A DNA stretch of 46,469 nucleotides from Cryobacterium sp. GTDB taxonomy: Bacteria > Actinomycetota > Actinomycetes > Actinomycetales > Microbacteriaceae. Position numbers and translations under genes: made by a program. The DNA is taken from positions 1 through 46,469 of the forward strand of contig JAHBSS010000009.1 of assembly GCA_019639015.1 (NCBI GenBank). The letters run 5' to 3'. Every line of letters begins with the position of its first letter. Within the stretch, counting starts at the first letter, position 1. This document shows, piece after piece, positions 23,718-41,014 of the stretch. Below the pieces are notes generated by a model. It ran no database searches. It was not told the origin of the DNA and saw nothing but the letters and a program-made list of their open reading frames with translations.

Positions 23718-24410
23718 CTAAACCTTTGCTGATTTCAGCATGTAGCCAAAGCCGCGCTTGGTCTGAATTACCGGCTCGTCAGAGAACTGATCAAGCTTGC
23801 GCCGTAAGTAGGAGATGTATGACTCGACGATTCCGGCATCCCCGTTGAAGTCGTATTCCCAAACGTGGTCAAGAATTTGGGCCTTGCTGAGCACTCGATT
23901 TGGATTCAACATCAAGTACCGAAGTAGCTTGAACTCGGTTGGGCTTAGTTCGATTGAGGTTTCACCGATCGTGACTTCGTGCGTGTCTTGATCCATCGTG
24001 AGGTCACCGGTTCGGATGATTGCGTCCTCTTCGCCCTGCATTGTCCGGCGCAGGATCGCCTTGATTCTGGCAACAATCTCGTCGAGGCTGAACGGCTTTG
24101 TTACATAGTCGTCCCCACCAACGGTTAGTCCGGTGATTTTGTCCTCGGTGTCATCCTTGGCTGTCAAGAACAAAATCGGTGCTGTATAACCGCTTGCTCT
24201 CAATCGCTTTGTCACTCCAAAGCCATTCATGTCGGGGAGCATGACGTCAAGGATGATGAGGTCAGGTTCTTCTTCAAGTACCGCAGAAATGGTTTGAGCT
24301 CCATTGCCTACGGCTCGCACCGCAAAGCCAGCGAATCGCAGACTCGTGGTTAGCAGGTCTCTGATGTTTGGTTCGTCATCTACGATGAGGATCTTTGGCC
24401 CATTACTCAT
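23718..24410 (-). CDS. OmpR-family response regulator (TrcR/TcrX-like)
   Basis: 230 residues from ATG 24410. Receiver: ILIVDDEPN, phosphoacceptor Asp55 in LIILDVMLPD, VTKPFSLDEI. Winged helix: LSPTEFKLLRYLMLN, SKAQILDHVWEYDFNGD and VESYISYLRRKLD, the wording of the TrcR/TcrX group. There is no ribosome site; GATACT at 24423-24418 lies 7 nt upstream of ATG, consistent with a leaderless message. It forms an operon with the kinase and perhaps the WXG100 gene. Confidence 0.9.
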   Translation of the reverse strand: MSNGPKILIVDDEPNIRDLLTTSLRFAGFAVRAVGNGAQTISAVLEEEPDLIILDVMLPDMNGFGVTKRLRASGYTAPILFLTAKDDTEDKITGLTVGGDDYVTKPFSLDEIVARIKAILRRTMQGEEDAIIRTGDLTMDQDTHEVTIGETSIELSPTEFKLLRYLMLNPNRVLSKAQILDHVWEYDFNGDAGIVESYISYLRRKLDQFSDEPVIQTKRGFGYMLKSAKV

Positions 24411-24504
24411 GCTCAAAGTATCTGCGTGTTCGCTGTGTGTTACCTGAGTGAGAGTTGATTCTTTGTAGCGAACAATCTGAGTTCAGTGGGTGCAAACTTG
24501 AATC

Positions 24505-24672
24505 ATGGAATCTGTCGACCGCGAACGCGAGGATGAAGTCCAAAGCGAGTTTTCATCCCAAGGTGAGTCAGTTTGTTGGCTCGGACAGGTTTGTCCAGAA
24601 TGCGGAGCTTTGATCGAGGCGCAACTGCCTGGCAAGTGTTGGCGGTGCGGAGAACTAGTCGCCCCGAGTTGA
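24505..24672 (+). CDS. 55-residue zinc-ribbon protein
   Basis: An acidic N-terminus (MESVDREREDEVQ) is followed by two CxxC knuckles, CPECG and CWRCG, separated by 13 residues, with another Cys at CWLGQV. This is a rubredoxin/zinc-ribbon arrangement and would bind one zinc. The gene is intact, in a divergent position to the response regulator. It converges with the SufR-like gene and the two coding ends overlap by 18 nt. Function unknown; a partner to a nucleic acid or protein complex is likely. Confidence 0.7.
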   Translation: MESVDREREDEVQSEFSSQGESVCWLGQVCPECGALIEAQLPGKCWRCGELVAPS

Positions 24673-25323
24673 TGAGATCTCTGCGCAACATCCACCAGCC
24701 GGGGAGATGAATCGCACTCGCTTTGGGTCTTCGCCCACTCCGGTCGCAACACCTTCGAGAAAAGCGCAGTTTGCGTGGCAGATGATTTCGGCGTGACTTT
24801 GGGCAAGCTGGTGGAACGGGCAGTTTGTAAGAGTGATTGTGCCGTTGGCGTCGTTTCGGGGCTCATAGCCGCAAGCTTCCAGAGCGGTTTCGATCTTGCC
24901 TGATTGCTCGCCGATTTTTCGACCGGTCTCAACAGCAACCTTGGTGAGCGCCTCTCGCACCGGCTTTCCGGAGCGATCCGATTCCTCAACGGCGGCAGCC
25001 AAAAGGTCTCCAGCTAGCTCATACCGGCGAGCGGGGAACGAAATCGAAATTTCCCGCGCCGCTCGCCGATAGAGCTTAGATGGACGCCCTGCCCCCGGAC
25101 CGCTTCGCCCGCTCAAGCGACGGAACTCGGTCTCAAGCATCCCTTCTTCTTCGAGTCGGTCGAGGTGAAACGCGGCGGTGCTGCGAGGTACCCCGACGGC
25201 CTTCGCAGCATCCTCCCTACTCACCGCGTTTTCACTTCGACAAACGAAATCGAACAGTGCACGCCGTTGTGGGTCGCTGATTGCAGCGACGGCGGCGACT
25301 TGTTCACTTCTCGACTCACTCAC
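24655..25323 (-). CDS. SufR-like winged-helix regulator with a C-terminal cysteine cluster
   Basis: 222 residues from GTG 25323. The N-terminal winged helix (ISDPQRRALFDFV, VPRSTAAFHLDRLEEEGML) precedes GRPSKLYRR and a sensory domain. C-terminal cysteines at about 168, 182, 186, 212 and 213 (TNCPFH, IICHANCAF, GGCCAEI) resemble the [4Fe-4S] site of SufR, the repressor of Fe-S assembly genes; no suf genes are here. The start is supported by TATGAT at 25335-25330, 6 nt upstream, and absence of a ribosome site. It is divergent from the folE operon and likely controls it in response to Fe-S or redox state. Confidence 0.78.
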   Translation of the reverse strand: MSESRSEQVAAVAAISDPQRRALFDFVCRSENAVSREDAAKAVGVPRSTAAFHLDRLEEEGMLETEFRRLSGRSGPGAGRPSKLYRRAAREISISFPARRYELAGDLLAAAVEESDRSGKPVREALTKVAVETGRKIGEQSGKIETALEACGYEPRNDANGTITLTNCPFHQLAQSHAEIICHANCAFLEGVATGVGEDPKRVRFISPAGGCCAEISSTRGD

Positions 25324-25329
25324 AAACAC

Positions 25330-25390
25330 ATCATAACTCTAAAATAGTCAATCTTGACAAAAGAAATTATTTGGAACTACTGTTAATGCG
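25330..25390. promoter_or_regulatory. Overlapping divergent leaderless promoters with a GTCAA-TC-TTGAC dyad
   Basis: For folE: TTGACA (25354-25359), 18-nt spacer, TACTGT (25378-25383), then 6 nt to GTG 25390. For the regulator: TATGAT (25335-25330), then 6 nt to GTG 25323. The dyad GTCAA-TC-TTGAC at 25347-25358 overlaps the folE -35 box and lies between the two promoters, a good operator position. Confidence 0.6.
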
Positions 25391-26052
25391 TGACTAGTAA
25401 AGACGCAGAAGCAACGAACCGTGCTGAACGAGAACGCGCCGCAGAAAAGTCGGCTTCCGTTTCACCACTTCACGCAGTTGAGGTTTCGGATAGCGGGATT
25501 CAAGTAAAGCGGGCTGAAGCGGCAGTCTCAGAATTACTTGCAGCTTTAGGTCGTGATGTTTCAGATCCAAACCTGCAAGAAACGCCGAGGCGTGTAGTTG
25601 CTAGCTTTGTCGAGCAGTTAACTCCGCGCGAATTTTCCATGACCACGTTTGCAAACGATGACGGTTACGACGAGTTGGTTTTAGTTCGAGACATCCCATT
25701 TCATTCACTTTGCGAACACCACTTGCTTCCATTCCGAGGAGTTGCCCACGTTGGCTACTTGCCGGGGGATCGAATCGTCGGGATTTCAAAGCTTGCCCGG
25801 ACCGTCGAACTGTTTTCTCGGGATCTACAAGTGCAGGAACGGCTAACGAAGCAAATCGCGGATTACTTAGAAGACAAGTTGCAACCGCGCGGGGTAGGTG
25901 TGGTTCTTGAGGCGGAGCACATGTGTATGACACTTCGGGGAGCGCAAGCCGCTGGCTCAATAACTACCACTTCGACTTTCAAGGGTGCGCTAACGAAAGA
26001 CAGCGCTTTGCGCCGTCGATTCTTACCCGCATTGGGCGATTTGACCGCATAG
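25390..26052 (+). CDS. folE: GTP cyclohydrolase I
   Basis: Converts GTP to 7,8-dihydroneopterin triphosphate, the first step of folate and pterin synthesis. The zinc ligands are Cys108 and His111 in HSLCEHHLLPF and Cys179 in EHMCMTLRG; GISKLARTVELFSRDLQVQERL is the standard central block. Residues 1-35 form a polar extension. 220 residues. GTG 25390 lies at the expected transcription start, so the message is probably leaderless. It is the first gene of a four-gene operon lacking folB and folK. Confidence 0.92.
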   Translation: MTSKDAEATNRAERERAAEKSASVSPLHAVEVSDSGIQVKRAEAAVSELLAALGRDVSDPNLQETPRRVVASFVEQLTPREFSMTTFANDDGYDELVLVRDIPFHSLCEHHLLPFRGVAHVGYLPGDRIVGISKLARTVELFSRDLQVQERLTKQIADYLEDKLQPRGVGVVLEAEHMCMTLRGAQAAGSITTTSTFKGALTKDSALRRRFLPALGDLTA

Positions 26053-26092
26053 CTGAGCAACAACCGGCTCACAAGTTTGGAATGGAAGAGAT

Positions 26093-27322
26093 ATGTCTGA
26101 AAAGAAGCAGTTCATTATTGTCGGCGGCGGCCTAGCCGGTGTATCGGCCGCGGAAGAATTACGCAAGCAAGGATTTGACGGCGGCATCAAAATCGTCGGA
26201 AAAGAAAACCACGCACCATATATTCGTCCGCCACTTTCAAAGGGCTATTTGAACGGAAGCGATGGATTGGATGCCGTTTACGTTCACCCCGAAACTTGGT
26301 ACGGGGAAAACTCGATAGAACTCATGACTGGCACCAAGGTGTTTGGCGTAAATGCGCAAGACAAAGAAATTACGATTTCAGGCGGTCGGCCATTGAGTTA
26401 CGACAAGCTTCTACTTGCAACCGGGTCCTCGCCAAGATTGCTGACGATTGACGGTGCCGAACTTGGCGGCGTCTACTATTTGCGCACACTTGAGGATTCG
26501 CAGAAGTTGCGCGGTGAGCTCGCAGAAGGCGGTCGAAACCTTGTGCTAATTGGTTCTGGTTGGATTGGAATGGAAGTCGGTGCCACAGCGAGAACGCTTG
26601 GCAGCGAGGTCACAATTCTAGAACGCGACCCAATCCCTCTGGCAAACGCAATCGGGGACGAAATGGGCACGCTGTTCGCGGATTATCACCGCGAAAAAGG
26701 AGTCAAGCTTCGCACTTCAGTCATGGTTGAGCGCATTCTCGGCAACCACGGCAAGGTTACGGGAGTAGAGCTAGCAGGAGGAGAGGTAGTTCCGGCGGAC
26801 ATGGTGCTGATCGGTGTTGGAGCGGTGCCAAACGTTGCGCTCGCAGACGACGCTGGGATCATCACCGAAAACGGCATAGTCACGGACCAGGCAATGCAAA
26901 CTAGCGACCCGGATATTTTTGCCGCAGGTGACGTTGCAAATGCGTTCCATCCGCTGGCGAACATGCGACTGCGTAGTGAACACTGGGCGAACGCACTCAA
27001 CGAAGGACCGGCCGCTGCGCGCGGAATGCTTGGTCAAAATGAGAGTTTCGAAGACATCCCTTATTTCTATACGGATCAGTTCGACCTTGGAATGGAGTAT
27101 TCCGGTTACGGGCCGATGACTCGCGGGGCTGAAATCGTGTACCGGGGCGACAAGGCCGCTCGAGAGTTCGTTGCTTTCTGGATCAAGGATGAGCGAGTCG
27201 TCGCCGGCATGAACGTGAACGTTTGGGATGTCAACGAGCAAGTTCAGCGGCTAATCAAGTCGCAGAAAGTTGTTGACTTGTCAAAGCTCACTGACGCAAC
27301 CGTGCCGCTAGAGGAGATCTAG
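26093..27322 (+). CDS. FAD-dependent NAD(P)H:ferredoxin reductase-like oxidoreductase
   Basis: 409 residues of the BphA4/ThcD ferredoxin reductase family (related to AIF). FAD fold: FIIVGGGLAGVSAAEELR at the N-terminus; NAD(P)H fold: LVLIGSGWIGMEVGATAR; second FAD contact: IFAAGDVANAFHP. The C-terminal domain (YFYTDQFDLGMEYSGYG) is complete. Such enzymes pass electrons from NAD(P)H to a ferredoxin. It lies between folE and folP, 40 nt after the first and directly abutting the second, suggesting that the pathway has a reductive or Fe-S-dependent step. Confidence 0.87.
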   Translation: MSEKKQFIIVGGGLAGVSAAEELRKQGFDGGIKIVGKENHAPYIRPPLSKGYLNGSDGLDAVYVHPETWYGENSIELMTGTKVFGVNAQDKEITISGGRPLSYDKLLLATGSSPRLLTIDGAELGGVYYLRTLEDSQKLRGELAEGGRNLVLIGSGWIGMEVGATARTLGSEVTILERDPIPLANAIGDEMGTLFADYHREKGVKLRTSVMVERILGNHGKVTGVELAGGEVVPADMVLIGVGAVPNVALADDAGIITENGIVTDQAMQTSDPDIFAAGDVANAFHPLANMRLRSEHWANALNEGPAAARGMLGQNESFEDIPYFYTDQFDLGMEYSGYGPMTRGAEIVYRGDKAAREFVAFWIKDERVVAGMNVNVWDVNEQVQRLIKSQKVVDLSKLTDATVPLEEI

Positions 27323-28183
27323 TTGCAGCGAAGAATCGGTACCAGAACCTTCGACTTTGCTCGAGAAGTCGCAGTCATGGCGGTAATCAACCGGACACCG
27401 GATTCATTTTTCGACAAAGGCGCAACATTTGCGCTGGACAAAGCCGTTCAAGCAGCACTGAAGGCCGCCCAAGATGGCGCCGACTGGGTTGACATTGGCG
27501 GAGTACCATTTGGTCGCGGACCGGTGGTCACTGAGCAAGAAGAACTGGATCGCGTGGTTCCTGTCGTTGCGGCGATCGCAGCGGAATCCGATGTTGTGAT
27601 TTCGGTCGACACGTTTAACGCGAACGTTGCCGAAGCTGCGATCGCGGCTGGAGCGAGCGTGATCAACGACACTAGCGGGCTATTTGATCCGCAAATGGCT
27701 TCCAAAGTTGCCAAGACCGAAGCGACTTTGGTGCTCACTCACAGCATGTCACCGCCCCGGGCTGAACCACCAAAACCCGAGTACACGGATGTTGTAAGAG
27801 AAGTTATCCAGTTCTTGCGGGATCGAATCACGCGAGCGCACGCGGCAGGGATACCAGATGATCGCATAATTGTTGATCCGGGTCACGACCTAAACAAGAA
27901 CACCTTCCATTCGTTGGAACTCACGAGACGACTTGGCGAAGTTGTTGCTCTCGGGTACCCAACATTGGCTGCGGTTTCAAATAAAGACTTCATCGGCGAG
28001 ACCATCGACCGCAAGCAGGGTGAGCGCTTGGAGGGTTCCCTCGCGGCGGCGGTGTTTTGCATCTTGGAAGGTGCGCGGATCGTGAGAATGCACGATGTGC
28101 CGGCAACGGTCGCAGCAGTTCACATGGTCGAGGCAATCTACGGTTGGCGCAAACCCGCCTGGACGATTCACAATATGGGATGA
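27323..28183 (+). CDS. folP2: FolP2-type dihydropteroate synthase paralogue
   Basis: 286 residues, TIM-barrel DHPS family. MAVINRTPDSFFDKG replaces the usual GILNVTPDSFSDGG. The loop that holds the Thr-Arg pair for p-aminobenzoate in true DHPS (DIGGESTRPG) is DIGGVPFGRGP here. VDPGHDLNKNTFH and AVSNKDFIGETI also follow mycobacterial FolP2 (Rv1207) rather than FolP1, as I recall them. FolP2 has been reported not to act as a DHPS. The pterin pocket looks kept (ISVDTFNANVAEAAI, VINDTSG), so a pterin substrate with a different partner is plausible. TTG 27323 abuts the reductase stop and has GAGGAG upstream. Confidence 0.82.
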   Translation: MQRRIGTRTFDFAREVAVMAVINRTPDSFFDKGATFALDKAVQAALKAAQDGADWVDIGGVPFGRGPVVTEQEELDRVVPVVAAIAAESDVVISVDTFNANVAEAAIAAGASVINDTSGLFDPQMASKVAKTEATLVLTHSMSPPRAEPPKPEYTDVVREVIQFLRDRITRAHAAGIPDDRIIVDPGHDLNKNTFHSLELTRRLGEVVALGYPTLAAVSNKDFIGETIDRKQGERLEGSLAAAVFCILEGARIVRMHDVPATVAAVHMVEAIYGWRKPAWTIHNMG

Positions 28184-28914
28184 GCAGCGAACTTCGACAG
28201 GTTTGGCCGGTATTCTCAGAGCCTCTAAGCGATGAGCAAATTGTCTCGGCTTTGGTGGTGTCATCACCGAACCTGCGAGTGAATTTCGTGTCAAGCCTCA
28301 ATGGTGCAACTACTCATGAGGGTCGTTCCGGAGGACTTTCGGGCGATGCCGATAAGCGACATTTTGAACTTCTTCGGCGAGTTTGCGACGTAGTACTCGT
28401 AGGCGCAGGAACGGTGCGCGATGAAGGCTACAGTGCGATGAGAGTCAGTGAGGAATCAACTCACTGGCGAATTTCGAACGGGCTGGCACCTCATCCGGTG
28501 TTCGCGATTGTCAGTCGCAGTCTGCAACTGGATCCAAGATCACCTATCTTCGCCGACGCGCCAACTAGACCAATAATTGTCACAACCGAGGTGGCTCCAC
28601 CGGATCGAATCGCAACGTTGTCAGAAGTTGCCGATGTGTTGATAGCGGGAACCCGCACTCTCGACTGTTCCAAGATGCGTACCGAACTGCACGCGCGGAA
28701 ACTTAACAACATCCTGTGCGAAGGCGGCCCCAGTTTGTTCGGTGCGATGTTGCAAGCCGAAGTTGTTGATGAACTGTTCCTAACAGTTTCTTCGGTGCTC
28801 GAAGGCGGTCGCGAGTTCAGGTTGGTTGGCGGACTGCTTTCTGAACCGGTAAAACTTCGGCTCGCTTCGGTGTTGGTCGCGCAAGAGGGACTGTTACTCA
28901 GGTATCAGCGTTGA
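28180..28914 (+). CDS. RibD C-domain reductase, Rv2671-like (DHFR-like fold)
   Basis: 244 residues from ATG 28180, overlapping the folP2 stop as ATGA. NFVSSLNGATTHEGRSGG and VLVGAGTVRDEGYSAM are the substrate and NADPH sites of the family, and LNNILCEGGPSLFGAMLQ is the C-terminal block. The related Rv2671 of M. tuberculosis has been reported to have dihydrofolate reductase activity; RibD itself reduces a pyrimidine in riboflavin synthesis. Position after folE and folP2 favours a pterin reductase. No deaminase domain is fused. Confidence 0.82.
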   Translation: MSSELRQVWPVFSEPLSDEQIVSALVVSSPNLRVNFVSSLNGATTHEGRSGGLSGDADKRHFELLRRVCDVVLVGAGTVRDEGYSAMRVSEESTHWRISNGLAPHPVFAIVSRSLQLDPRSPIFADAPTRPIIVTTEVAPPDRIATLSEVADVLIAGTRTLDCSKMRTELHARKLNNILCEGGPSLFGAMLQAEVVDELFLTVSSVLEGGREFRLVGGLLSEPVKLRLASVLVAQEGLLLRYQR

Positions 28915-28923
28915 ACTACTAGC

Positions 28924-28957
28924 GCTGAGGTGTCAACGCCGAGGTGTCAACGCCGAG
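28924..28957. repeat. 14-bp tandem repeat
   Basis: GCTGAGGTGTCAAC (28924-28937) is repeated as GCCGAGGTGTCAAC (28938-28951) and begins again as GCCGAG. The array spans the gap after the reductase gene and the end of the convergent membrane-protein gene. Confidence 0.75.
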
Positions 28958-29237
28958 CGGACTTTGCCGCTTTCGATCGCCGAACCGAGTTAGTTACCAG
29001 GAGCAACACAAGTAGCAAGAAAGCGACGGGTAGTCCCCAATATTGCAGCGTGAACACGGCTGGCCAAATACCGCGATTGAAGTCACCGCTTTTTGCTACA
29101 CCGGTCGCGGTTGCGATAATTACTGAGAAGAAGCAAATAATCGTGACCGCCACAATTGCCAAAATTGAAACGGAAAGAATCTTCTCCAACCGGGTTGCTT
29201 TGGGAGTATCTGGCTCGATCGCGGGTGTTTTGCTCAC
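28947..29237 (-). CDS. Two-helix membrane protein, function unknown
   Basis: 96 residues from GTG 29237 (MSKTPAIEPDTPKATRLEK). Two membrane helices: ILSVSILAIVAVTIICFFSVIIA split over about 22-44 and LPVAFLLLVLLLVTNSV near the end, with a basic tail RRSKAAKSARR. TATTCT lies 7 nt upstream of GTG with no ribosome site, so it looks leaderless. It is divergent from the cold-shock gene. No family is recognised. Confidence 0.65.
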   Translation of the reverse strand: MSKTPAIEPDTPKATRLEKILSVSILAIVAVTIICFFSVIIATATGVAKSGDFNRGIWPAVFTLQYWGLPVAFLLLVLLLVTNSVRRSKAAKSARR

Positions 29238-30553: not shown

Positions 30554-30829
30554 ATGGTAAGCAAACACGATATCTTGCTCGTGATTATTTCGGTATTGAC
30601 GACCGGTGCGGTTTGCACGGGGGTGAACGTAATGATCCCAGGTCCAGCAGGTCCAGCGGGCCCGGCAGGTCCCGTTGGAATTCAAGGAGAGCCGGGTCCG
30701 GCAGGTCCTGCTGGACCAGCAGGTCCGGAAGGCCCTCAAGGGCCAGCAGGTCCGGAAGGCCCAAGGGGTCCCGCAGGTCCACAAGGCCCTCAGGGTCCAG
30801 CTGGACCGCCTTACAGCGAAACGAAGTAG
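30554..30829 (+). CDS. Small collagen-like protein with N-terminal membrane anchor
   Basis: 91 residues from ATG 30554, with AGGAGG 6-7 nt upstream. The N-terminus ([21 protein letters not shown]) is a signal anchor; Cys21 is not in a standard lipobox. Residues 30-86 are 19 uninterrupted Gly-X-Y triplets, mostly GPA, GPE and GPQ, which should form a collagen triple helix outside the membrane, ending PPYSETK. It lies between DUF2530 and serC, a place where other actinobacteria have no such gene as far as I recall. A structural or adhesive surface role is inference. Confidence 0.82.
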
Positions 30830-34142: not shown

Positions 34143-35714
34143 ATGCCACCAACTACTAAAGAGGCACAACGCGCCGAGCTTCACAAGACGATCTGGCGCA
34201 TCGCGAATGACCTGCGTGGAAGCGTCGACGGCTGGGACTTCAAGAGCTACGTGCTCGGCATGCTCTTCTACCGTTTCTTTTCGGAGAGCCTTGCGGCATA
34301 TCTCAACAAAGCCGAGCGTGAGTTTACCGGCGATGACTTCGACTACGCCGCGATTTCTGATAGGCAAGCAGAGAGAGGTCGCAAGGATGCGGTCAACGAG
34401 AAAGGCTATTTCATTCTCCCAAGCGAGCTCTTCGTCAATGTCCGCAAGCGTGCAGCGCTGGACGAGAACCTCAACGAGACTCTGGAGCGAGTGTTTAAGA
34501 ACATCGAGGGTTCCGCGAAAGGCGCCGCCAGCGAAAGCAACCTGAGTGGCCTCTTTAAAGATCTCGACGTGAACAGCGATAAGCTCGGTAAGTCGGTGTC
34601 AAAGCGCAACGAGAAGCTGGTCAAGCTCCTGGACGCCATTGGAGATTTGCCGCTCGGTAACTTCGAGGACAACCGCATCGACTTGTTCGGTGATGCCTAC
34701 GAATACCTCATGCAGATGTATGCTTCCGAAGCCGGTAAGTCCGGTGGCGAGTTCTTTACACCGCAAGAAGTTAGCGAACTTCTGGCTCGCATAACGGTCG
34801 TCGGCAAGACTGCGGTGAACAAGGTTTACGACCCCGCGGTTGGCTCCGGCTCGCTGCTGCTTAAGTTCGCGAAGGTGCTCGGACACGAGAATGTCCGTCA
34901 GGGTTTCTTCGGTCAGGAGATCAACCCAACCACCTACAACCTGGCTCGCGGCAACATGTTCTTGCACGACGTGAGCTATACCAACTTTAATATCGCTCTC
35001 GGGGACACCCTTACCGACCCAGCGCATTGGGATTACGAGCCGTTCGAGGCGATCGTTTCCAATCCGCCCTATTCGATCAAGTGGGACGGTGACGCTAATC
35101 CGTTGCTGATCAACGACCCGCGCTTCGCACCCGCAGGGATCCTCGCGCCGAAGTCCAAGGCCGATCTCGCCTTCACGATGCACATTCTGAGTTGGCTCGC
35201 GGTGAACGGCACGGCCGCGATCGTCGAGTTCCCGGGTGTCATGTATCGAGGGGGCGCGGAGCAGAAGATTCGCAAGTACCTCATCGACAACAACTACGTC
35301 GATGCCGTCATCCAACTGCCACCGGATATGTTCTTCGGCACCACGATCGCCACTTGCGTCCTCGTGCTCAAGAAGTCGAAGAAGTCGAACGACATCCTGT
35401 TCATCGATGCTTCCGCCGAATTCGTCCGCATCGGAAACAAGAACAAGCTCACACCGGAAAATCAGCAGCGCATCCTCGACACGTTCGTCGCCCGTAAGGA
35501 TGCGGACCACTTCGCCAAGGTCGTCCCGAACGACGAGATCGCCGAGCGCGAATACTTGATCTCGGTCTCGTCCTACGTCGAGGCCGAGGACACGCGCGAG
35601 GCCGTGGACATCACCGAGCTCAATGTCGAAATCGCTCGCATCGTTGCAAGGCAATCCGAACTACGGGTCGCAATCGACGCCATCGTCGCGGATCTTGAGG
35701 AGGACACCAAATGA
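34143..35714 (+). CDS. hsdM: Type I restriction-modification methyltransferase subunit HsdM
   Basis: N6-adenine methyltransferase subunit; with HsdS it protects host DNA, and with HsdR it forms the restriction complex. 523 residues, as in the type IC group. The N-terminal HsdM domain (HKTIWRIANDLRGSVDGWDF, YVLGMLFYRFFSESL) precedes the SAM site YDPAVGSGSLLLKFA and the catalytic NPPYS at 307-311. A coiled C-terminal tail contacts HsdS. GAGGAG lies upstream of ATG. The stop overlaps the mrr start as ATGA. Confidence 0.95.
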   Translation: MPPTTKEAQRAELHKTIWRIANDLRGSVDGWDFKSYVLGMLFYRFFSESLAAYLNKAEREFTGDDFDYAAISDRQAERGRKDAVNEKGYFILPSELFVNVRKRAALDENLNETLERVFKNIEGSAKGAASESNLSGLFKDLDVNSDKLGKSVSKRNEKLVKLLDAIGDLPLGNFEDNRIDLFGDAYEYLMQMYASEAGKSGGEFFTPQEVSELLARITVVGKTAVNKVYDPAVGSGSLLLKFAKVLGHENVRQGFFGQEINPTTYNLARGNMFLHDVSYTNFNIALGDTLTDPAHWDYEPFEAIVSNPPYSIKWDGDANPLLINDPRFAPAGILAPKSKADLAFTMHILSWLAVNGTAAIVEFPGVMYRGGAEQKIRKYLIDNNYVDAVIQLPPDMFFGTTIATCVLVLKKSKKSNDILFIDASAEFVRIGNKNKLTPENQQRILDTFVARKDADHFAKVVPNDEIAEREYLISVSSYVEAEDTREAVDITELNVEIARIVARQSELRVAIDAIVADLEEDTK

Positions 35715-36640
35715 CCGTTCCAATTCCCAACTGGGAAGGTTTCATGATCCCGACGCTCAAGGTGCTTAGTGACGGTGTCGTGCGGCACTGGCGAGAGTTT
35801 CAACCACTCGTTGCAGATGAGGTCGGGCTCACCGACGAGCAGCGCAAGGAACTGCTACCGTCGGGCTCGCAGTTGACGTACCAGAATCGCATTGGTTGGG
35901 GAGCTTCTTTCTTGACGAATGTCGGTGCTTTAGACCGCCCGAAGCGGGGGCACTACGCGATTACGGATGCGGGTCGGCAGTTGTTGGCGAAGTACCCGCA
36001 TGGCGTGAAGGAACGTGATGTGCGCGCCTTAGGCGAAGATCCAAACTCGCCAATTCGCGTCTATCAGAAGTCAGAACGGTCCCGTTCAGAAGGCTCGAAT
36101 ACTGATCTTGAGACTGCGGAGGAGTCATTGACTCCGATCGAGCAGGTACAGCGTGGCATCGCTCGCATTCACAAGGAAGTCGGCGTCGAATTACTTGAAC
36201 GATTGCAGGGTAAGGACCCGGGCTTCTTTGAGCAGGCTGTCGTCGAGTTGCTGCTCGCGATGGGCTACGGTGGTGTGACAGGGGGTGGCAAACCCACGCC
36301 GCTAAGCAATGACGGTGGAATCGATGGCGTTATTGACCAAGACGTCCTTGGTCTCAGTCGCGTCTACGTTCAGGCGAAGCGCTATGCCGATGATAATTCG
36401 GTGGGACGCCCCGATGTTCAGGCGTTCGTCGGCGCCCTGGCAGGCAAGGCAGATAGCGGCGTATTCATAACGACGAGCCGCTTCTCGCCAGCGGCACGCG
36501 AGTACGTCAATCTGGTGCCGACACGCATTATTCTGATCGACGGTCAACAACTTACCTATCTGATGATTCGTTATGGCGTGGGTGTCCAGGTGCAAGAGAC
36601 ATTCAAAGCCGTCGAGATCGATGAAGACTTTTTCGCATGA
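35711..36640 (+). CDS. mrr: Mrr-family restriction endonuclease embedded in the hsd operon
   Basis: 309 residues. The N-terminal Mrr winged-helix domain (about 8-95: WEGFMIPTLKVLSDG, YQNRIGWGASFL, YAITDAGRQLL) is joined by a linker to the Mrr catalytic domain (about 168-290), with FFEQAVVELLLAMGYGG, Asp205 in NDGGIDGVID and the QAK triad (Gln221, Lys223) in VYVQAKRY. Mrr enzymes cut foreign methylated DNA (type IV restriction). Start and stop both overlap neighbours as ATGA, so it is translated together with HsdM and HsdS. Confidence 0.9.
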   Translation: MTVPIPNWEGFMIPTLKVLSDGVVRHWREFQPLVADEVGLTDEQRKELLPSGSQLTYQNRIGWGASFLTNVGALDRPKRGHYAITDAGRQLLAKYPHGVKERDVRALGEDPNSPIRVYQKSERSRSEGSNTDLETAEESLTPIEQVQRGIARIHKEVGVELLERLQGKDPGFFEQAVVELLLAMGYGGVTGGGKPTPLSNDGGIDGVIDQDVLGLSRVYVQAKRYADDNSVGRPDVQAFVGALAGKADSGVFITTSRFSPAAREYVNLVPTRIILIDGQQLTYLMIRYGVGVQVQETFKAVEIDEDFFA

Positions 36641-37890
36641 GCCGGGTCGATGAGTTGATTACTGAGTTGTGTCCAGAGGGTGTGCCGTATCGCAGCGTAA
36701 CGGGTCTCGCGGATTACATTCGCGGCGTCACTTATAACAAAAATGATGAGCAGGCCGATGGGCCGATCGGCGTATTCCGTGCAAATAACATCTCACTTGC
36801 GTCGAATACCCTGAATTTTGACGACTTAAAGCGAGTCTCGAGCAACGTGCGAGTGCGAGAGAACCAGCGCCTACGTGAAGGTGACATTCTGATCTGCGCC
36901 GGTAGCGGCAGCAAGGCACACATTGGCAAAGTCGCCTACATTTACGAGGATCTGAGTGAGACATTCGGCGGCTTTATGGGCGTAATTCGCACGCGAGGCG
37001 AAGTCCAGCCTCGTTACTTATTCCACATACTGACCGGTGGTGAGTTCCTGAAGTACCTCGGTGGCGCACTCTCCACCACAACGATCAATAACTTGAACAT
37101 CGGCGTATTGAACGGCTTTCGAATACCGGTGCCGCCGCTTGAGGTGCAGCGCGAGATTGTGAGAATCTTGGATCACTTCACCGAGCTGGAAGCGGAGCTG
37201 GAAGCGGAGCTGGAAGCGGAGCTGGAAGCGCGGCGCCTTCAGTATGCCTTTTATCGGGACCAGCTCCTGACCTTCCCTGAAGCGGGGGGGGTCCGGAGGG
37301 TTCCGATGGGTGATTTCGCCACTCTCGTCCGCGGGAACGGAATGCCGAAAACGGATTTCACTGACGAAGGTGTTCCGGCTATCCATTACGGCCAGATCTA
37401 TACCTATTACGGCGCATTTGCGACCATCAGTAAGTCGTTCGTATCAGCCTCGACTGCTTCAAAGCTCGCGAAAGTCGATCCAGGTGACATCGTGATCACC
37501 AACACGAGCGAGAACCTCGATGACGTCTGTAAGGCAGTCGCATGGCTCGGTAGCGAGCCCGCGGTTACTGGTGGACACGCGACTGTAATCAAGCACGGTG
37601 AGAATCCGAAGTTTCTTGCCTACTACTTTCAGACATCCGAGTTCGGCACTGCGAAGCGGATGCACGCTACAGGAACGAAGGTCATCGACGTTTCGGCCAA
37701 GGGACTTGCAAAGATTGAGATTCCGCTGCCTCCGCGCGAGGAGCAGGATCGGATCGTTGCCATCCTTGACAAGTTCGACGCCCTCGTGAATGACCTCTCG
37801 ATCGGCCTCCCCGCCGAACTCAACGCGCGCCGCAAGCAATACGAGTACTACCGCGACAAGCTCCTCACGTTCGAGGAGGCTGCTGCATGA
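36637..37890 (+). CDS. hsdS: Type I restriction-modification specificity subunit HsdS
   Basis: 417 residues with two target-recognition domains (about 1-165 and 220-380), each followed by a helical spacer. VPPLEVQREIVRILDHFTEL ends the first and LPPREEQDRIVAILDKFDAL the second, showing the internal two-fold symmetry. The central spacer contains four ELEA repeats, encoded by four identical 12-bp units, before RRLQYAFYRDQLLTF, which mirrors RRKQYEYYRDKLLTF at the end. The bipartite target cannot be read from sequence. Confidence 0.94.
   Translation: MSRVDELITELCPEGVPYRSVTGLADYIRGVTYNKNDEQADGPIGVFRANNISLASNTLNFDDLKRVSSNVRVRENQRLREGDILICAGSGSKAHIGKVAYIYEDLSETFGGFMGVIRTRGEVQPRYLFHILTGGEFLKYLGGALSTTTINNLNIGVLNGFRIPVPPLEVQREIVRILDHFTELEAELEAELEAELEARRLQYAFYRDQLLTFPEAGGVRRVPMGDFATLVRGNGMPKTDFTDEGVPAIHYGQIYTYYGAFATISKSFVSASTASKLAKVDPGDIVITNTSENLDDVCKAVAWLGSEPAVTGGHATVIKHGENPKFLAYYFQTSEFGTAKRMHATGTKVIDVSAKGLAKIEIPLPPREEQDRIVAILDKFDALVNDLSIGLPAELNARRKQYEYYRDKLLTFEEAAA
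37183..37230 (+). repeat. Four perfect 12-bp repeats in the hsdS spacer
   Basis: GAGCTGGAAGCG occurs four times head to tail, encoding (ELEA)4 between the two recognition domains. In EcoR124-type systems the number of TAEL repeats at this place sets the length of the non-specific gap in the DNA target. Confidence 0.95.
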
Positions 37891-40800
37891 GTGGAGTCAT
37901 CAAGTATGATCCGATTGCTGTCTCATCCGAGTCGACGGTTGTAGCCGAGTACGTTCCGGACGCGCAGACAGCGAGTGCCTATCAATCTGAGGCTGCGCTT
38001 GAGAATGAGTTCATCAAGCTTCTCCAGTCGCAGGCTTATGAGTATCTGCCGATCACATCCGAGGCGCAACTCATCGCAAACCTGCGTACTCAGCTGGAGG
38101 CGCTCAACGGCATCACGTTCTCCGACAAAGAGTGGGAGAGCTTTTTCGCGTCGCGGATCGCTGGAAAGAACGATGGTATCCCCGAGAAGACCAAGCGCAT
38201 CCAGGACGACTATGTGCAGCTGCTGACTCGCGAGGACGGGTCAACGAAGAACATCCGGCTGATTGACAAGCAGAACATCCACAACAACCGTCTGCAGGTC
38301 ATCAACCAGTATCAGATCGGCCAGGCCGATCCTGCCGATGAACACAGTGGCGGCGCCGCTCGCAGCAATCGCTATGACGTGACCGTGCTCGTGAACGGGC
38401 TGCCGATGGTGCACATCGAGTTGAAGCGTCGCGGCGTGGCGATCCGTGAGGCGTTCAACCAGATCGATCGTTACTTGCGGGATTCGTTCTGGGCGGGGTC
38501 CGGCCTTTTTGACTATGTGCAGTTGTTTGTGATCAGCAATGGTACGCACACGAAGTATTACTCGAATACGACTCGGCGCCAGCACCTCGACGAGGGTAGT
38601 AGCGCGAAGGGTGCGAAGAAGACGAGCAACTCGTACGAGTTCACGTCTTGGTGGGCGGATGCGCAGAACAAGCAGATCGCCGACCTGACTTCGTTCGCCA
38701 AGACCTTCTTCGCCAAGCACACACTGTTGGCGATCCTCACGCGCTACTGCGTACTCACCGTTGACGAGATGCTGCTGGTGATGCGGCCGTATCAGATCGT
38801 TGCAACCGAGCGGATTTTGCAGAAGATCGAGATTTCGACGAACCTCAAGAAGCTCGGCACGATCGAGGCGGGGGGTTATGTCTGGCACACCACCGGCTCC
38901 GGCAAGACGCTGACCTCGTTCAAGACAGCGCAGTTGGCCAGTCGTTTGCCGGGCGTGGATAAAGTGCTCTTCGTTGTCGACCGGAAAGACCTCGACTACC
39001 AGACCATGCGAGAGTATGACCGTTTCGAGAAAGGCGCCGCGAACTCGAACACTTCGACCGCAGTGTTGAAGAGGCAACTCGAAGACCCCCAGGCGCGGAT
39101 CATCATCACGACGATTCAGAAGCTGTCAATTTTCATCGCGTCGCCCGCGAACAAAGGGCACGCGATCTTCGGCGGCCACGTCGTGCTCATCTTCGACGAG
39201 TGTCACCGGTCACAGTTCGGTGACATGCACACCGAGATCACGCGAGCATTCAAGCGGTACAACCTGTTCGGTTTCACCGGCACCCCGATCTTCACCGCGA
39301 ACATGAGCAGTGGCGGCAACCCGCAGTTGAAGACCACCGAGCAGGCGTTTGGTGAAAAGTTGCACACCTACACGATTGTCGATGCCATAACCGATAAGAA
39401 CGTCCTGCCGTTCCGCATCGATTACGTGAATACGATAAAGCTGCCCGAGGAACTCACCGACAAGCAAGTGTCGGCGATCAACACCGAAGAGGCGCTGCTG
39501 GCACCGGAACGCCTCAAGCAGGTCGTTGAGTACATCCTGGAGCACTTCGACCAGAAGACCAAGCGAGCCAGCGGCTATGTCCACCAGCTCGTCGATAATG
39601 TCAGCGACGTCGCCGGTGGTCGCAACAAGGTTGAGGCGAAACGGTCACCCACACATGTGAAGGGCTTCAACGCGATCTTCGCGACCGCGTCCATCGAAGC
39701 CGCGAAACGGTACTACAACCAGTTCTCGATCCAGCATCAAGAGCTCCCTCCGGATCGTCGACTTAAGATCGGGCTGATCTACTCCTACAGCGCGAACGAA
39801 CCCGTCGAGGATGGCGCGTTGGATGAAGAAGGCTTCGACACAGGGATGCTGGATAAATCAACCCGCGACTTTCTCGAAGATGCGATCCAGGACTACAACG
39901 ATCACTTCGGCACGAGTTACGACACCTCGAGCGACAAGTTTCAGAACTATTACAAAGACTTTTCGCTTCGGCTCAAGAACCGCGAGTTGGATTTGGCGAT
40001 CGTCGTCAACATGTTCCTGACCGGTTTCGATGCCACGACCCTGAACACACTGTTCGTCGACAAGAACCTGCGCGCGCACGGTCTCATTCAGGCGTTCTCG
40101 CGCACCAACCGCATCCTGAACTCGGTGAAGACGTACGGCAACATCGTCAGCTTCCGCAACCTTGAGGATGCTACCAACGACGCTCTCGCGCTGTTCGGCA
40201 ACAAGGACGCCAAGGGTATCGCGCTGTTGAAACCGTACGCAGACTACTACGCCGAGTACTCCGAGAATGTTGCCCAGTTACTTGACAACTATCCGCTTGG
40301 TCAGTCGATCGTGGGCGAGCAAGCACAGAAGGACTTCATCGCACTTTTCGGTCACATCCTGCGACTGGAGAACATCCTGACCTCGTTCGACGACTTTGCG
40401 GGCCACGAGCTACTCACCGAACGGCAAGGCCAGGACTACCGCAGCGTCTACCTTGACCTCTATGCCGATTTTCGGGCGACCAAAGACACCGAGAAGGAAC
40501 CCATCAGCGAGGATGTCGTCTTCGAGATCGAACTGATCAAACAGGTCGAGATCAACGTCGACTACATCCTCATGCTCGTGCAAAAGTACCGCGAGGCTCG
40601 CGGCGACGGCGACGACAAGGAGATCCGCGCCGAAATCAACCGCGCAGTGGATGCCAGCCCCTCCCTGCGCAACAAGAAAGACCTCATCATCGCCTTCGTC
40701 GACTCAGTATCCGCAACCGGCGAAATCGACGACGATTGGAATCGCTTCATCACCGCCAAACGCGAAGCCGAACTCGACCAAATCATCAACGACGAAAACC

Positions 40801-41012
40801 TCCGCCCGGATGCCGCCCGCGCCTACATCGAGACCGCCTTCCGCGACGGCGGAATCCGCACCACCGGCACCGCCATCACCAAGGTTCTACCCCCCACCTC
40901 CCGCTTCACCCCCGACGGCGGACATAGCGAGAAAAAGCAGCGCGTCCTCGACAAGCTCGCCGAGTTCTTCGAGAGGTTTTTTGGGTTGAGTGCGGGCGGA
41001 GGAGACCAGTAG
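37887..41012 (+). CDS. hsdR: Type I restriction endonuclease subunit HsdR
   Basis: 1041-residue translocase-nuclease. The N-terminal PD-(D/E)xK nuclease has Asp164 in NRYDVTVLVNGLP and Glu178/Lys180 in VHIELKRRG. The SF2 motor has Walker A HTTGSGKTLTS (about 337-341), VLIFDECHRSQFG (DEAD-like), GFTGTPIF and VNMFLTGFDATTLNTLFVDK. The helical C-terminus binds the methylase. The start overlaps hsdS as ATGA. The last 400 bp are markedly richer in C-ending codons than the rest. Confidence 0.95.
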   Translation: MSGVIKYDPIAVSSESTVVAEYVPDAQTASAYQSEAALENEFIKLLQSQAYEYLPITSEAQLIANLRTQLEALNGITFSDKEWESFFASRIAGKNDGIPEKTKRIQDDYVQLLTREDGSTKNIRLIDKQNIHNNRLQVINQYQIGQADPADEHSGGAARSNRYDVTVLVNGLPMVHIELKRRGVAIREAFNQIDRYLRDSFWAGSGLFDYVQLFVISNGTHTKYYSNTTRRQHLDEGSSAKGAKKTSNSYEFTSWWADAQNKQIADLTSFAKTFFAKHTLLAILTRYCVLTVDEMLLVMRPYQIVATERILQKIEISTNLKKLGTIEAGGYVWHTTGSGKTLTSFKTAQLASRLPGVDKVLFVVDRKDLDYQTMREYDRFEKGAANSNTSTAVLKRQLEDPQARIIITTIQKLSIFIASPANKGHAIFGGHVVLIFDECHRSQFGDMHTEITRAFKRYNLFGFTGTPIFTANMSSGGNPQLKTTEQAFGEKLHTYTIVDAITDKNVLPFRIDYVNTIKLPEELTDKQVSAINTEEALLAPERLKQVVEYILEHFDQKTKRASGYVHQLVDNVSDVAGGRNKVEAKRSPTHVKGFNAIFATASIEAAKRYYNQFSIQHQELPPDRRLKIGLIYSYSANEPVEDGALDEEGFDTGMLDKSTRDFLEDAIQDYNDHFGTSYDTSSDKFQNYYKDFSLRLKNRELDLAIVVNMFLTGFDATTLNTLFVDKNLRAHGLIQAFSRTNRILNSVKTYGNIVSFRNLEDATNDALALFGNKDAKGIALLKPYADYYAEYSENVAQLLDNYPLGQSIVGEQAQKDFIALFGHILRLENILTSFDDFAGHELLTERQGQDYRSVYLDLYADFRATKDTEKEPISEDVVFEIELIKQVEINVDYILMLVQKYREARGDGDDKEIRAEINRAVDASPSLRNKKDLIIAFVDSVSATGEIDDDWNRFITAKREAELDQIINDENLRPDAARAYIETAFRDGGIRTTGTAITKVLPPTSRFTPDGGHSEKKQRVLDKLAEFFERFFGLSAGGGDQ

Positions 41013-41014
41013 TA

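What the first reader, a model, noticed from the sequence alone, without database searches (positions are those of the whole stretch)
24655..28914. Pterin module: SufR-like Fe-S regulator facing folE - ferredoxin reductase - folP2 - Rv2671-like reductase
Four same-strand genes with a 40-nt gap, a direct abutment and an ATGA overlap combine GTP cyclohydrolase I, an FAD ferredoxin reductase, a FolP2-type DHPS paralogue and a DHFR-fold reductase, without folB or folK. A regulator with a C-terminal Cys cluster is divergent. Seen: gene order, motifs, coupling. Known: FolP2 is reported inactive as DHPS, and the Rv2671 relative reduces dihydrofolate. Inference: the operon makes or recycles a non-standard pterin, or is a redox-controlled backup folate route.
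Basis: partly seen in the sequence, partly recalled or inferred. Interest (0 to 1): 0.72.

Follow-up and report, generated by a model that had tools for sequence, protein, structure and literature searches.

The report
Likely second pterin pathway beside folate
This actinobacterium carries a regulated five-gene set that probably makes a folate-like molecule by a side route, using an enzyme whose usual partner-binding site has been rebuilt; relatives of two poorly understood enzymes of the tuberculosis bacterium sit here side by side.

Summary
In detail: a divergent Cys-rich regulator faces folE, an FAD reductase, folP2 and an Rv2671-type reductase. The genome keeps folP1-folB-folK behind ftsH, but that operon lacks folE; the module's folE is the only one found. 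folA was not found in 8 of 8 genomes of the genus. The set looks like two units: FolP2-reductase is the core (adjacent in 61 of 80 named loci), regulator-folE-FNR a separable cassette. A tree suggests folE came beside folP2 twice. FolP2 and the reductase also co-occur where unlinked (29 of 32 genomes with FolP2, 1 of 28 without), but in a wider 393-genome set collapsed to families the association is not significant. FolP2 keeps the pterin pocket and loses much of the pABA pocket: Thr62 is Phe and the pABA-carboxylate position is Asp in 80 of 80, against Thr and Arg/Lys in 29 of 29 FolP1 rows. A promoter block recurs in 14 of 17 regulator/folE gaps examined. Best reading: FolP2 joins a pterin to something other than free pABA and the reductase reduces the product; substrate, product and signal are inferred. 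A plain backup folate operon is disfavoured; folA presence is unrelated to FolP2.

The parts
24655..25329 (-). divergent ArsR/HTH_20-type regulator, 224 aa, C-terminal CPFH-x10-C-x29-CC cluster
   Evidence: ORF; PF12840 33.5 bits (cut-off 27); C170, C184, C214, C215 invariant in 17 rows; no TIGR02702 SufR match listed
25338..25365 (.). conserved operator/promoter block TCTAAAA-N9-TTGACAAAAGAA between the divergent genes (TTGACA at 25354-25359)
   Evidence: block found in 14 of 17 regulator/folE gaps examined; exact form in 13 of 162 loci held, 9 distinct places; single hit in the window with 0.31 expected by chance at one mismatch
25378..25383 (+). possible -10 box (TACTGT), 18 nt after TTGACA; the folE GTG would then be leaderless or nearly so
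   Evidence: read; NOT found by the consensus scan (0 promoters found, 2.0 expected in shuffles)
25390..26052 (+). folE, GTP cyclohydrolase I, 220 aa, module-type paralogue; only folE found in the genome
26093..27322 (+). FAD ferredoxin reductase, BphA4/putidaredoxin-reductase type, 409 aa
   Evidence: Pyr_redox_2 + Reductase_C; best PDB 3lxd E 1e-74
27323..28183 (+). folP2, DHPS-fold paralogue, 286 aa (TTG start): pterin pocket kept, pABA pocket altered
   Evidence: AF2 model mean pLDDT 94.0
28180..28914 (+). RibD_C reductase of the Rv2671 type, 244 aa, ATGA overlap with folP2

Best explanation
A two-part pterin module. Part A (regulator, FolE, FAD reductase) supplies 7,8-dihydroneopterin triphosphate under control of a cysteine-cluster regulator. 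Part B (FolP2, Rv2671-type reductase) uses the dihydropterin: FolP2 binds 6-hydroxymethyl-dihydropterin pyrophosphate (made from FolE's product by the FolB and FolK of the ordinary folate operon) in an intact pterin pocket and transfers it to an acceptor that is not free pABA; the RibD_C enzyme then reduces the dihydropterin product to the tetrahydro form with NADPH. In this lineage the module's FolE would also feed ordinary folate, because the folate operon's own folE is gone. Shown here: gene order, conservation, two groupings of the folE-folP2 link in a tree, sole folE, altered pABA pocket, co-occurrence of FolP2 and reductase, recurring promoter block. Inferred: acceptor, product, the regulator's signal, and the role of the FAD reductase.
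For: FolP2-reductase adjacent on one strand in 61 of 80 named loci; full five-gene set in 11 of 80. The pair has different conserved neighbours in Microbacteriaceae and Micrococcaceae loci. Co-occurrence: 29 of 32 FolP2 genomes against 1 of 28 others have the reductase at 80 bits or more, seven with the genes on other contigs or far apart; in 393 genomes of the class 266/26/31/70. FolE tree: a module-type clade (100/99) and, within canonical FolE, a second folP2-side clade of Curtobacterium, Frigoribacterium, Glaciihabitans and G011 (98/90). One folE match only in G000, G007 and G011, each beside folP2, and no folE match in their ftsH-folP1 gaps. Pocket: N22, N115, D185, K221, R255 and H257 kept in 80 of 80 named FolP2; Thr62 to Phe 80/80, Phe190 to Leu 80/80, Arg63 to A/S/G/K 80/80, position after K221 Asp 80/80; 29 FolP1 rows have Thr, Phe and Arg 29/29 and Arg/Lys 29/29. 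Promoter block in 14 of 17 gaps.
Against: No substrate or product was tested. 19 of 80 FolP2 loci lack the reductase directly downstream, and 57 of 393 genomes break the FolP2/reductase pairing; collapsed to families the association is not significant (31/2/8/2, p 0.23). Only 20 of 80 loci carry folE upstream and 23 of 80 FNR directly upstream, so FolE and FNR are not needed for the core. Not all of the pABA site is lost: the loop-1 Phe is kept 80/80, K221 80/80, and Pro64 in 65 of 80, though it is Arg in the window. The curated DHPS model scores FolP2 well over its cut-off. Asp96 is Glu in 4 of 80. No aromatic amino acid hydroxylase, a known tetrahydropterin user, in 60 genomes. No ferredoxin seen in the locus.
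Confidence: 0.45

Rival explanations
1. Backup or main folate route: FolP2 is a working DHPS and the RibD_C enzyme is the dihydrofolate reductase, so the set is simply a relocated folate operon.
For: The only folE found in the genome lies here; folA (PF00186) not found in 8 of 8 genomes of the genus; Rv2671 is reported as a DHFR with much reduced activity (PMC4879365 and PMC12855090, passages); DHPS model 260.1 bits; loop-1 Phe and K221 of the pABA site kept.
Against: FolP1-FolB-FolK present; all 32 FolP2 genomes show a second folP match; position that meets the pABA carboxylate is Asp in 80 of 80 FolP2; folA unrelated to FolP2 (p 0.61) and to the reductase (16/10 without folA, 14/20 with, p 0.19); 10 of 26 folA-less genomes lack a reductase hit of 80 bits or more, so another DHFR solution is likely; a second Rv2671-type paralogue at C67 could be the DHFR instead; M. 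leprae folP2 does not complement an E. coli folP mutant (PMC1971073, passage).
Confidence: 0.2
2. Folate repair: FolP2 joins the pterin to p-aminobenzoyl-glutamate, the folate breakdown product with a neutral amide where pABA has a carboxylate, giving dihydrofolate directly; the reductase finishes it. FolE is induced when Fe-S or redox stress destroys folate.
For: Asp at the pABA-carboxylate position fits an amide better than a carboxylate (contact of the Ser after the Lys with pABA carboxylate in Sul2, PMC10328974, passage); Rv2671 has DHFR activity; regulator Cys spacing close to SufR Rv1460.
Against: No direct evidence for the substrate; the stress link rests on the regulator's architecture only.
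Confidence: 0.17
3. FolP2 is a non-catalytic pterin-binding protein (sensor, carrier or partner of the reductase).
For: Loss of the Thr that meets the pABA amine and pyrophosphate (Thr51 role from PMC6057106, passage) and of the neighbouring Arg.
Against: Loop-1 residues, K221, R255 and H257 are invariant in the 80, more than binding alone would seem to need.
Confidence: 0.1
4. No joint function: conserved synteny by descent.
For: Microbacteriaceae loci share flanks (kinase, helicase-like, cold-shock and aminotransferase genes); co-occurrence is not significant by family.
Against: Same FolP2-reductase pair with other flanks in Micrococcaceae; folE beside folP2 in two clades; cassette A found apart from B in G035.
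Confidence: 0.05

Closest known systems
Mycobacterial FolP2 (Rv1207, name recalled; PDB 2vp8)
   Same: Best solved relative by sequence (E 7.1e-62); same SNKD motif with Asp at the pABA-carboxylate position
   Different: Loop 2 is GGVPFGRG here, GGVKAGPG in 2vp8; window type is split at 100 SH-aLRT from three rows with the 2vp8-like loop; linked here to folE and an Rv2671-type gene, while PMC1971073 (passage) reports folP2 of high-GC Gram-positives near cell-wall genes
Rv2671 (DHFR functional analogue; PDB 4xrb and others)
   Same: Best solved relative of the reductase (E 8.8e-37); antifolate-contact residues N32, D55 and E181 have matching residues (by eye), but the same letters also line up in a riboflavin-type reductase (6p8c), so they do not discriminate
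   Different: Here overlapping folP2 in an operon with folE; activity unknown
Actinobacterial ftsH-folE-folP-folB-folK order
   Same: Supplies FolP1, FolB and FolK here; same-genus G005 has ftsH-folE-folP1
   Different: In G000 and G007 folE is gone from it; window FolE is 41-56% identical to the ftsH-linked FolE rows and in a separate clade
SufR / Rv1460 Fe-S repressor
   Same: HTH plus C-terminal Cys cluster: C170-x13-C184-x29-C214-C215 here; ligands C203, C216, C244 in Rv1460 (PMC6034842, passages)
   Different: No TIGR02702 match listed; faces folE; Fe-S binding unknown
BphA4/putidaredoxin-reductase family
   Same: Full-length match, 3lxd E 1e-74
   Different: No oxygenase or ferredoxin seen beside it; below the cut-offs of the HcaD and AndAa models

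Membership tests
GTP cyclohydrolase I (FolE) | Equivalog model TIGR00063 over cut-off | tested here: met
   189.6 v 181.6 bits
GTP cyclohydrolase I (FolE) | Metal-ligand Cys/His/Cys (roles recalled) | tested here: met
   Cys, His, Cys in 16 of 16 module-type rows
Dihydropteroate synthase (functional FolP1) | TIGR01496 over cut-off and DHPS fold | tested here: met
   260.1 v 162.6; AF2 model TM 0.91/0.95 to 3tyz
Dihydropteroate synthase (functional FolP1) | Pterin pocket residues | tested here: met
   N115, D185, K221, R255 80/80; D96 76/80
Dihydropteroate synthase (functional FolP1) | pABA pocket: Thr62, Arg63, Phe190, Ser or a positive residue after K221 | tested here: not met
   0 of 80 at each of these four; 29 of 29 FolP1 rows have Thr, Arg, Phe and Arg/Lys. 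Loop-1 Phe is kept 80/80 and Pro64 65/80
Dihydropteroate synthase (functional FolP1) | Makes dihydropteroate from pABA | not testable with these tools
   -
FolP2 (2vp8 type) | Closest solved relative 2vp8; SNKD motif | tested here: met
   SNKD in 80 of 80
FolP2 (2vp8 type) | Loop 2 GGVKAGPG | tested here: not met
   GGxxF in 80 of 80; split from L030-L032 at 100 SH-aLRT
Rv2671-type reductase (PRK14059) | Curated model NF010663 over cut-off | tested here: inconclusive
   181.8 v 184 bits
Riboflavin reductase (RibD/RED) | TIGR00227/TIGR01508 over cut-off; deaminase domain | tested here: not met
   82.8 v 150.15 and 81.1 v 186.45; no deaminase domain
Riboflavin reductase (RibD/RED) | Lys after the DG motif (role recalled) | tested here: not met
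   Ala, Gly or Ser in 21 of 21 rows of A3
SufR | Model TIGR02702 | tested here: not met
   not among matches at E up to 10
SufR | C-terminal Cys cluster with SufR-like spacing | tested here: met
   against PMC6034842
SufR | Binds Fe-S; controls suf genes | not testable with these tools
   faces folE here
BphA4-type ferredoxin reductase | Pyr_redox_2 plus Reductase_C | tested here: met
BphA4-type ferredoxin reductase | Neighbouring ferredoxin or oxygenase | tested here: not met
   none among the genes of about 22-32 kb that were family-scanned

The most novel reading that the evidence does not exclude
Actinomycetes run a second pterin-conjugate pathway parallel to folate: FolP2 attaches the folate precursor to an unknown non-pABA acceptor and the Rv2671-type enzyme reduces the product to a tetrahydro cofactor. 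The two orphan enzymes known from tuberculosis drug work would be consecutive steps of this pathway, and the window's lineage has put it, with its own GTP cyclohydrolase, under a cysteine-cluster regulator.
Probability: 0.33. Interest if true: 0.85.

Novelty: new variant of a known kind. Interest (0 to 1): 0.62.

Why it matters
FolP2 (a DHPS look-alike that in M. leprae does not complement folP) and Rv2671 (a weak stand-in for dihydrofolate reductase) are usually discussed one at a time. An operon link in at least two families, co-occurrence where the genes are unlinked, and a charge change at the pABA-carboxylate position give a concrete, testable proposal for a shared job. If right, a large bacterial class has an unrecognised folate-like cofactor or a dedicated folate repair route, which would bear on how antifolates act in these bacteria.

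Tried and rejected
Considered and dropped. (1) 'Simple folate operon': another folP, folB and folK exist. (2) 'Replaces folA': no relation between folA and FolP2 or the reductase in 60 genomes. (3) Feeds an aromatic amino acid hydroxylase: PF00351 in 0 of 60 genomes. (4) Riboflavin enzyme: riboflavin models well below cut-off. (5) Further pathway genes in the flanks: the conserved flanking families looked like housekeeping genes by eye; only the window's own kinase, response regulator, cold-shock and aminotransferase genes among them were family-scanned. (6) A fold search of the regulator listed mainly winged-helix regulators, best ones of the ArsR kind; nothing spoke for its Cys domain (model pTM 0.53). 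(7) The consensus promoter scan found none in 24400-29000; the promoter claim rests on recurrence. (8) Literature: searched an open-access library; no held paper contains both Rv1207 and Rv2671 or two of FolP2, Rv2671, pyrimidine reductase and 'second dihydropteroate synthase'. Subscription papers are mostly not in it. Papers were seen as passages only.

Limits: the tables were typed by hand from printed outputs, and the FolP2-positive set of the 60 was my own assignment from scores. Thresholds were chosen after seeing the scores. p-values ignore relatedness. The named loci are the best 80 of at least 593 matches, so they lean towards close relatives. L066 and L075 look like the same genomes as G002 and G016 (contig lengths, positions), and the 29 FolP1 rows hold one genome (G005) twice. 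The FolP2 and FNR trees are quick trees without bootstrap. The window genome is 87.9% complete, so absences there are firmer for G007, a one-contig assembly at 96%. The promoter count leaves out G023, whose regulator lies at the other end of the cluster.
Full report
What is there. The window (55% G+C) lies in a 1.88 Mb, 94-contig genome; named relatives of its FolP2 put it in or near Microbacteriaceae. Families: ArsR/HTH_20-type regulator, GTP cyclohydrolase I, BphA4-type FAD reductase, DHPS fold, RibD_C reductase.

The rest of the folate pathway. The genome has a second folP behind ftsH with folB and folK. Same-genus G005 has ftsH-folE-folP1 there, and most ftsH-linked FolE rows of relatives also have folP1 on the same short locus. 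In the window's genome the ftsH to folP1 gap is 41 nt, in G007 at most about 135 nt, both without folE. The window's folE is the only match in its genome and G007 also has one, while G001-G006 have two or three. So module FolE probably supplies folate too in this lineage. folA was found in 0 of 8 genomes of the genus. But folA is unrelated to FolP2 in 60 genomes (17/15/17/11, p 0.61) and to the reductase (p 0.19), and a second Rv2671-type gene at C67 is another DHFR candidate, so 'this reductase replaces folA' is not established.

Conservation. Of 80 named loci (the best 80 of at least 593), 61 have the reductase directly downstream of folP2: Microbacteriaceae 39 of 40 (L142 ends 163 nt after folP2), Micrococcaceae 18 of 18, and 0 of 15 in Micromonosporaceae, Streptosporangiaceae and Thermomonosporaceae; 11 of 80 have all five genes, 20 have folE upstream and 23 FNR directly upstream. 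In L089, L111 and L144 the reductase lies near folP2 on the other strand. Conserved flanks differ between Microbacteriaceae and Micrococcaceae loci. In G005 other genes, one of them 3-hydroxyacyl-CoA dehydrogenase-like, sit between the module genes.

Two sub-units. Module-type FolE forms a clade apart from canonical FolE (100/99; it also holds a FolE of G054 without folP2 on its short locus). Within canonical FolE a second clade beside FolP2 holds Curtobacterium, Frigoribacterium, Glaciihabitans and G011 (98/90); G011 has one folE match, and its 670-nt ftsH-folP1 gap gives none. Arthrobacter and Specibacter loci with the full set have Micrococcaceae FolP2 (96 SH-aLRT) but FolE nested among Microbacteriaceae next to a Salinibacterium row (100/95), which suggests that the regulator-folE-FNR cassette was added to a resident folP2-reductase pair. 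Their FNR groups instead with G023 of the window's family (95, with one long branch), so the donor is not settled. In G035 a regulator-folE-FNR cassette lies 0.5 Mb from FNR-folP2-reductase. Each of the 12 loci of the 80 with a regulator match of 60 bits or more also has folE.

Co-occurrence. In 60 genomes the reductase (80 bits or more) is in 29 of 32 with FolP2 and 1 of 28 without; in seven of the 29 the genes are on other contigs or far apart. One of the three exceptions, G048, has a partial reductase match beside folP2. In 393 class members, at E 1e-70 for FolP2 and 1e-30 for the reductase, the table is 266/26/31/70, in the order 23/3/1/17; by genus 84/10/12/17, by family 31/2/8/2 (p 0.23). 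Much of the signal is therefore shared by descent, and 57 genomes break the rule.

The pocket. FolP2 was compared with 29 FolP1 rows of relatives. Pterin residues N115, D185, K221 and R255 are the same in both (D96 is Glu in 4 of 80 named FolP2). The pABA side differs: Thr62 to Phe (80/80; Ala in the three 2vp8-like rows), Arg63 to Ala/Ser/Gly/Lys (80/80; one of 25 further relatives keeps Arg), Phe190 to Leu (80/80; Phe in the three 2vp8-like rows), and the position after K221 is Asp (80/80; 24 of 25 relatives, one Asn; 3/3) against Arg/Lys (29/29). Kept are the loop-1 Phe (80/80) and Pro64 (65/80, Arg in the window). In S. aureus DHPS Phe17, Pro53, Phe172 and Lys203 form the pABA pocket and Thr51 meets the pABA amine (PMC6057106, passages); in Sul2 the residue after the Lys, Ser214, meets the pABA carboxylate (PMC10328974, passage). 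Matching these to window positions is mine, by motif. Mtb FolP2 (2vp8) shares SNKD. An Asp there should repel a carboxylate, so free pABA is an unlikely acceptor. This is inference from sequence.

Regulation. In 14 of 17 regulator/folE gaps examined a block TCTAAAA-N9-10-TTGACAAAAGAA recurs, some with single-base variants; the exact form occurs in 13 of 162 held loci, which are 9 distinct places. The three exceptions are the Arthrobacter and Specibacter loci. TTGACA reads as folE's -35 with a weak -10 at 17-18 nt; the left side holds a possible -10 for the regulator (by eye). The regulator's four Cys are invariant in 17 rows, with spacing close to that of C203, C216 and C244 of Rv1460, which are needed for its function and proposed as Fe-S ligands (PMC6034842, passages), but the SufR model is not among its matches.

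Mechanism. I commit to: FolE makes dihydroneopterin triphosphate; FolB and FolK of the folate operon give hydroxymethyl-dihydropterin pyrophosphate; FolP2 transfers it to a non-pABA acceptor; the Rv2671-type enzyme reduces the product. p-Aminobenzoyl-glutamate is the most concrete candidate acceptor (folate repair), an unknown amine the bolder one. The FAD reductase's role is open; cores without it exist, so it is an accessory.

Novelty. Each protein family is known. The joint module, the two folE groupings, the pocket contrast and the FolP2/Rv2671 tie were not seen in my literature searches, which cover open-access papers only. PMC1971073 (passage) already suggested that folP2 serves another pathway.

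Noticed in passing
window 34143-43378: Type I restriction system: HsdM, an Mrr-type nuclease gene between hsdM and hsdS, HsdS, HsdR, then an AAA_13 ATPase; an IrrE-type M78 peptidase gene lies beyond on the other strand.
   Followed up: no
window 30554-30829: 91-aa ORF with a collagen triple-helix repeat match (PF01391).
   Followed up: no
L161:3852-4556 (G000:C67): Second Rv2671/PRK14059-type reductase in the genome, with no pterin genes seen beside it; the genome's two RibD_C matches are both of this kind, so the usual riboflavin reductase was not found.
   Followed up: partly
L074 and L080, between regulator and folE: A small membrane-protein-like ORF (DoxX-like by eye) sits between the regulator and folE in two loci; my one attempt to scan it failed on coordinates.
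   Followed up: no
L129, L140, L080 folE upstream regions: Inverted repeat of the form TCTAAA...TTTAGA just before folE (by eye), perhaps the regulator's operator in loci that lack the common block.
   Followed up: no
L075 / G016, G013 and G023: folE (G016) and folP2 (G013) are split into overlapping pieces and folE of G023 has one TGA inside; real decay or assembly error.
   Followed up: no
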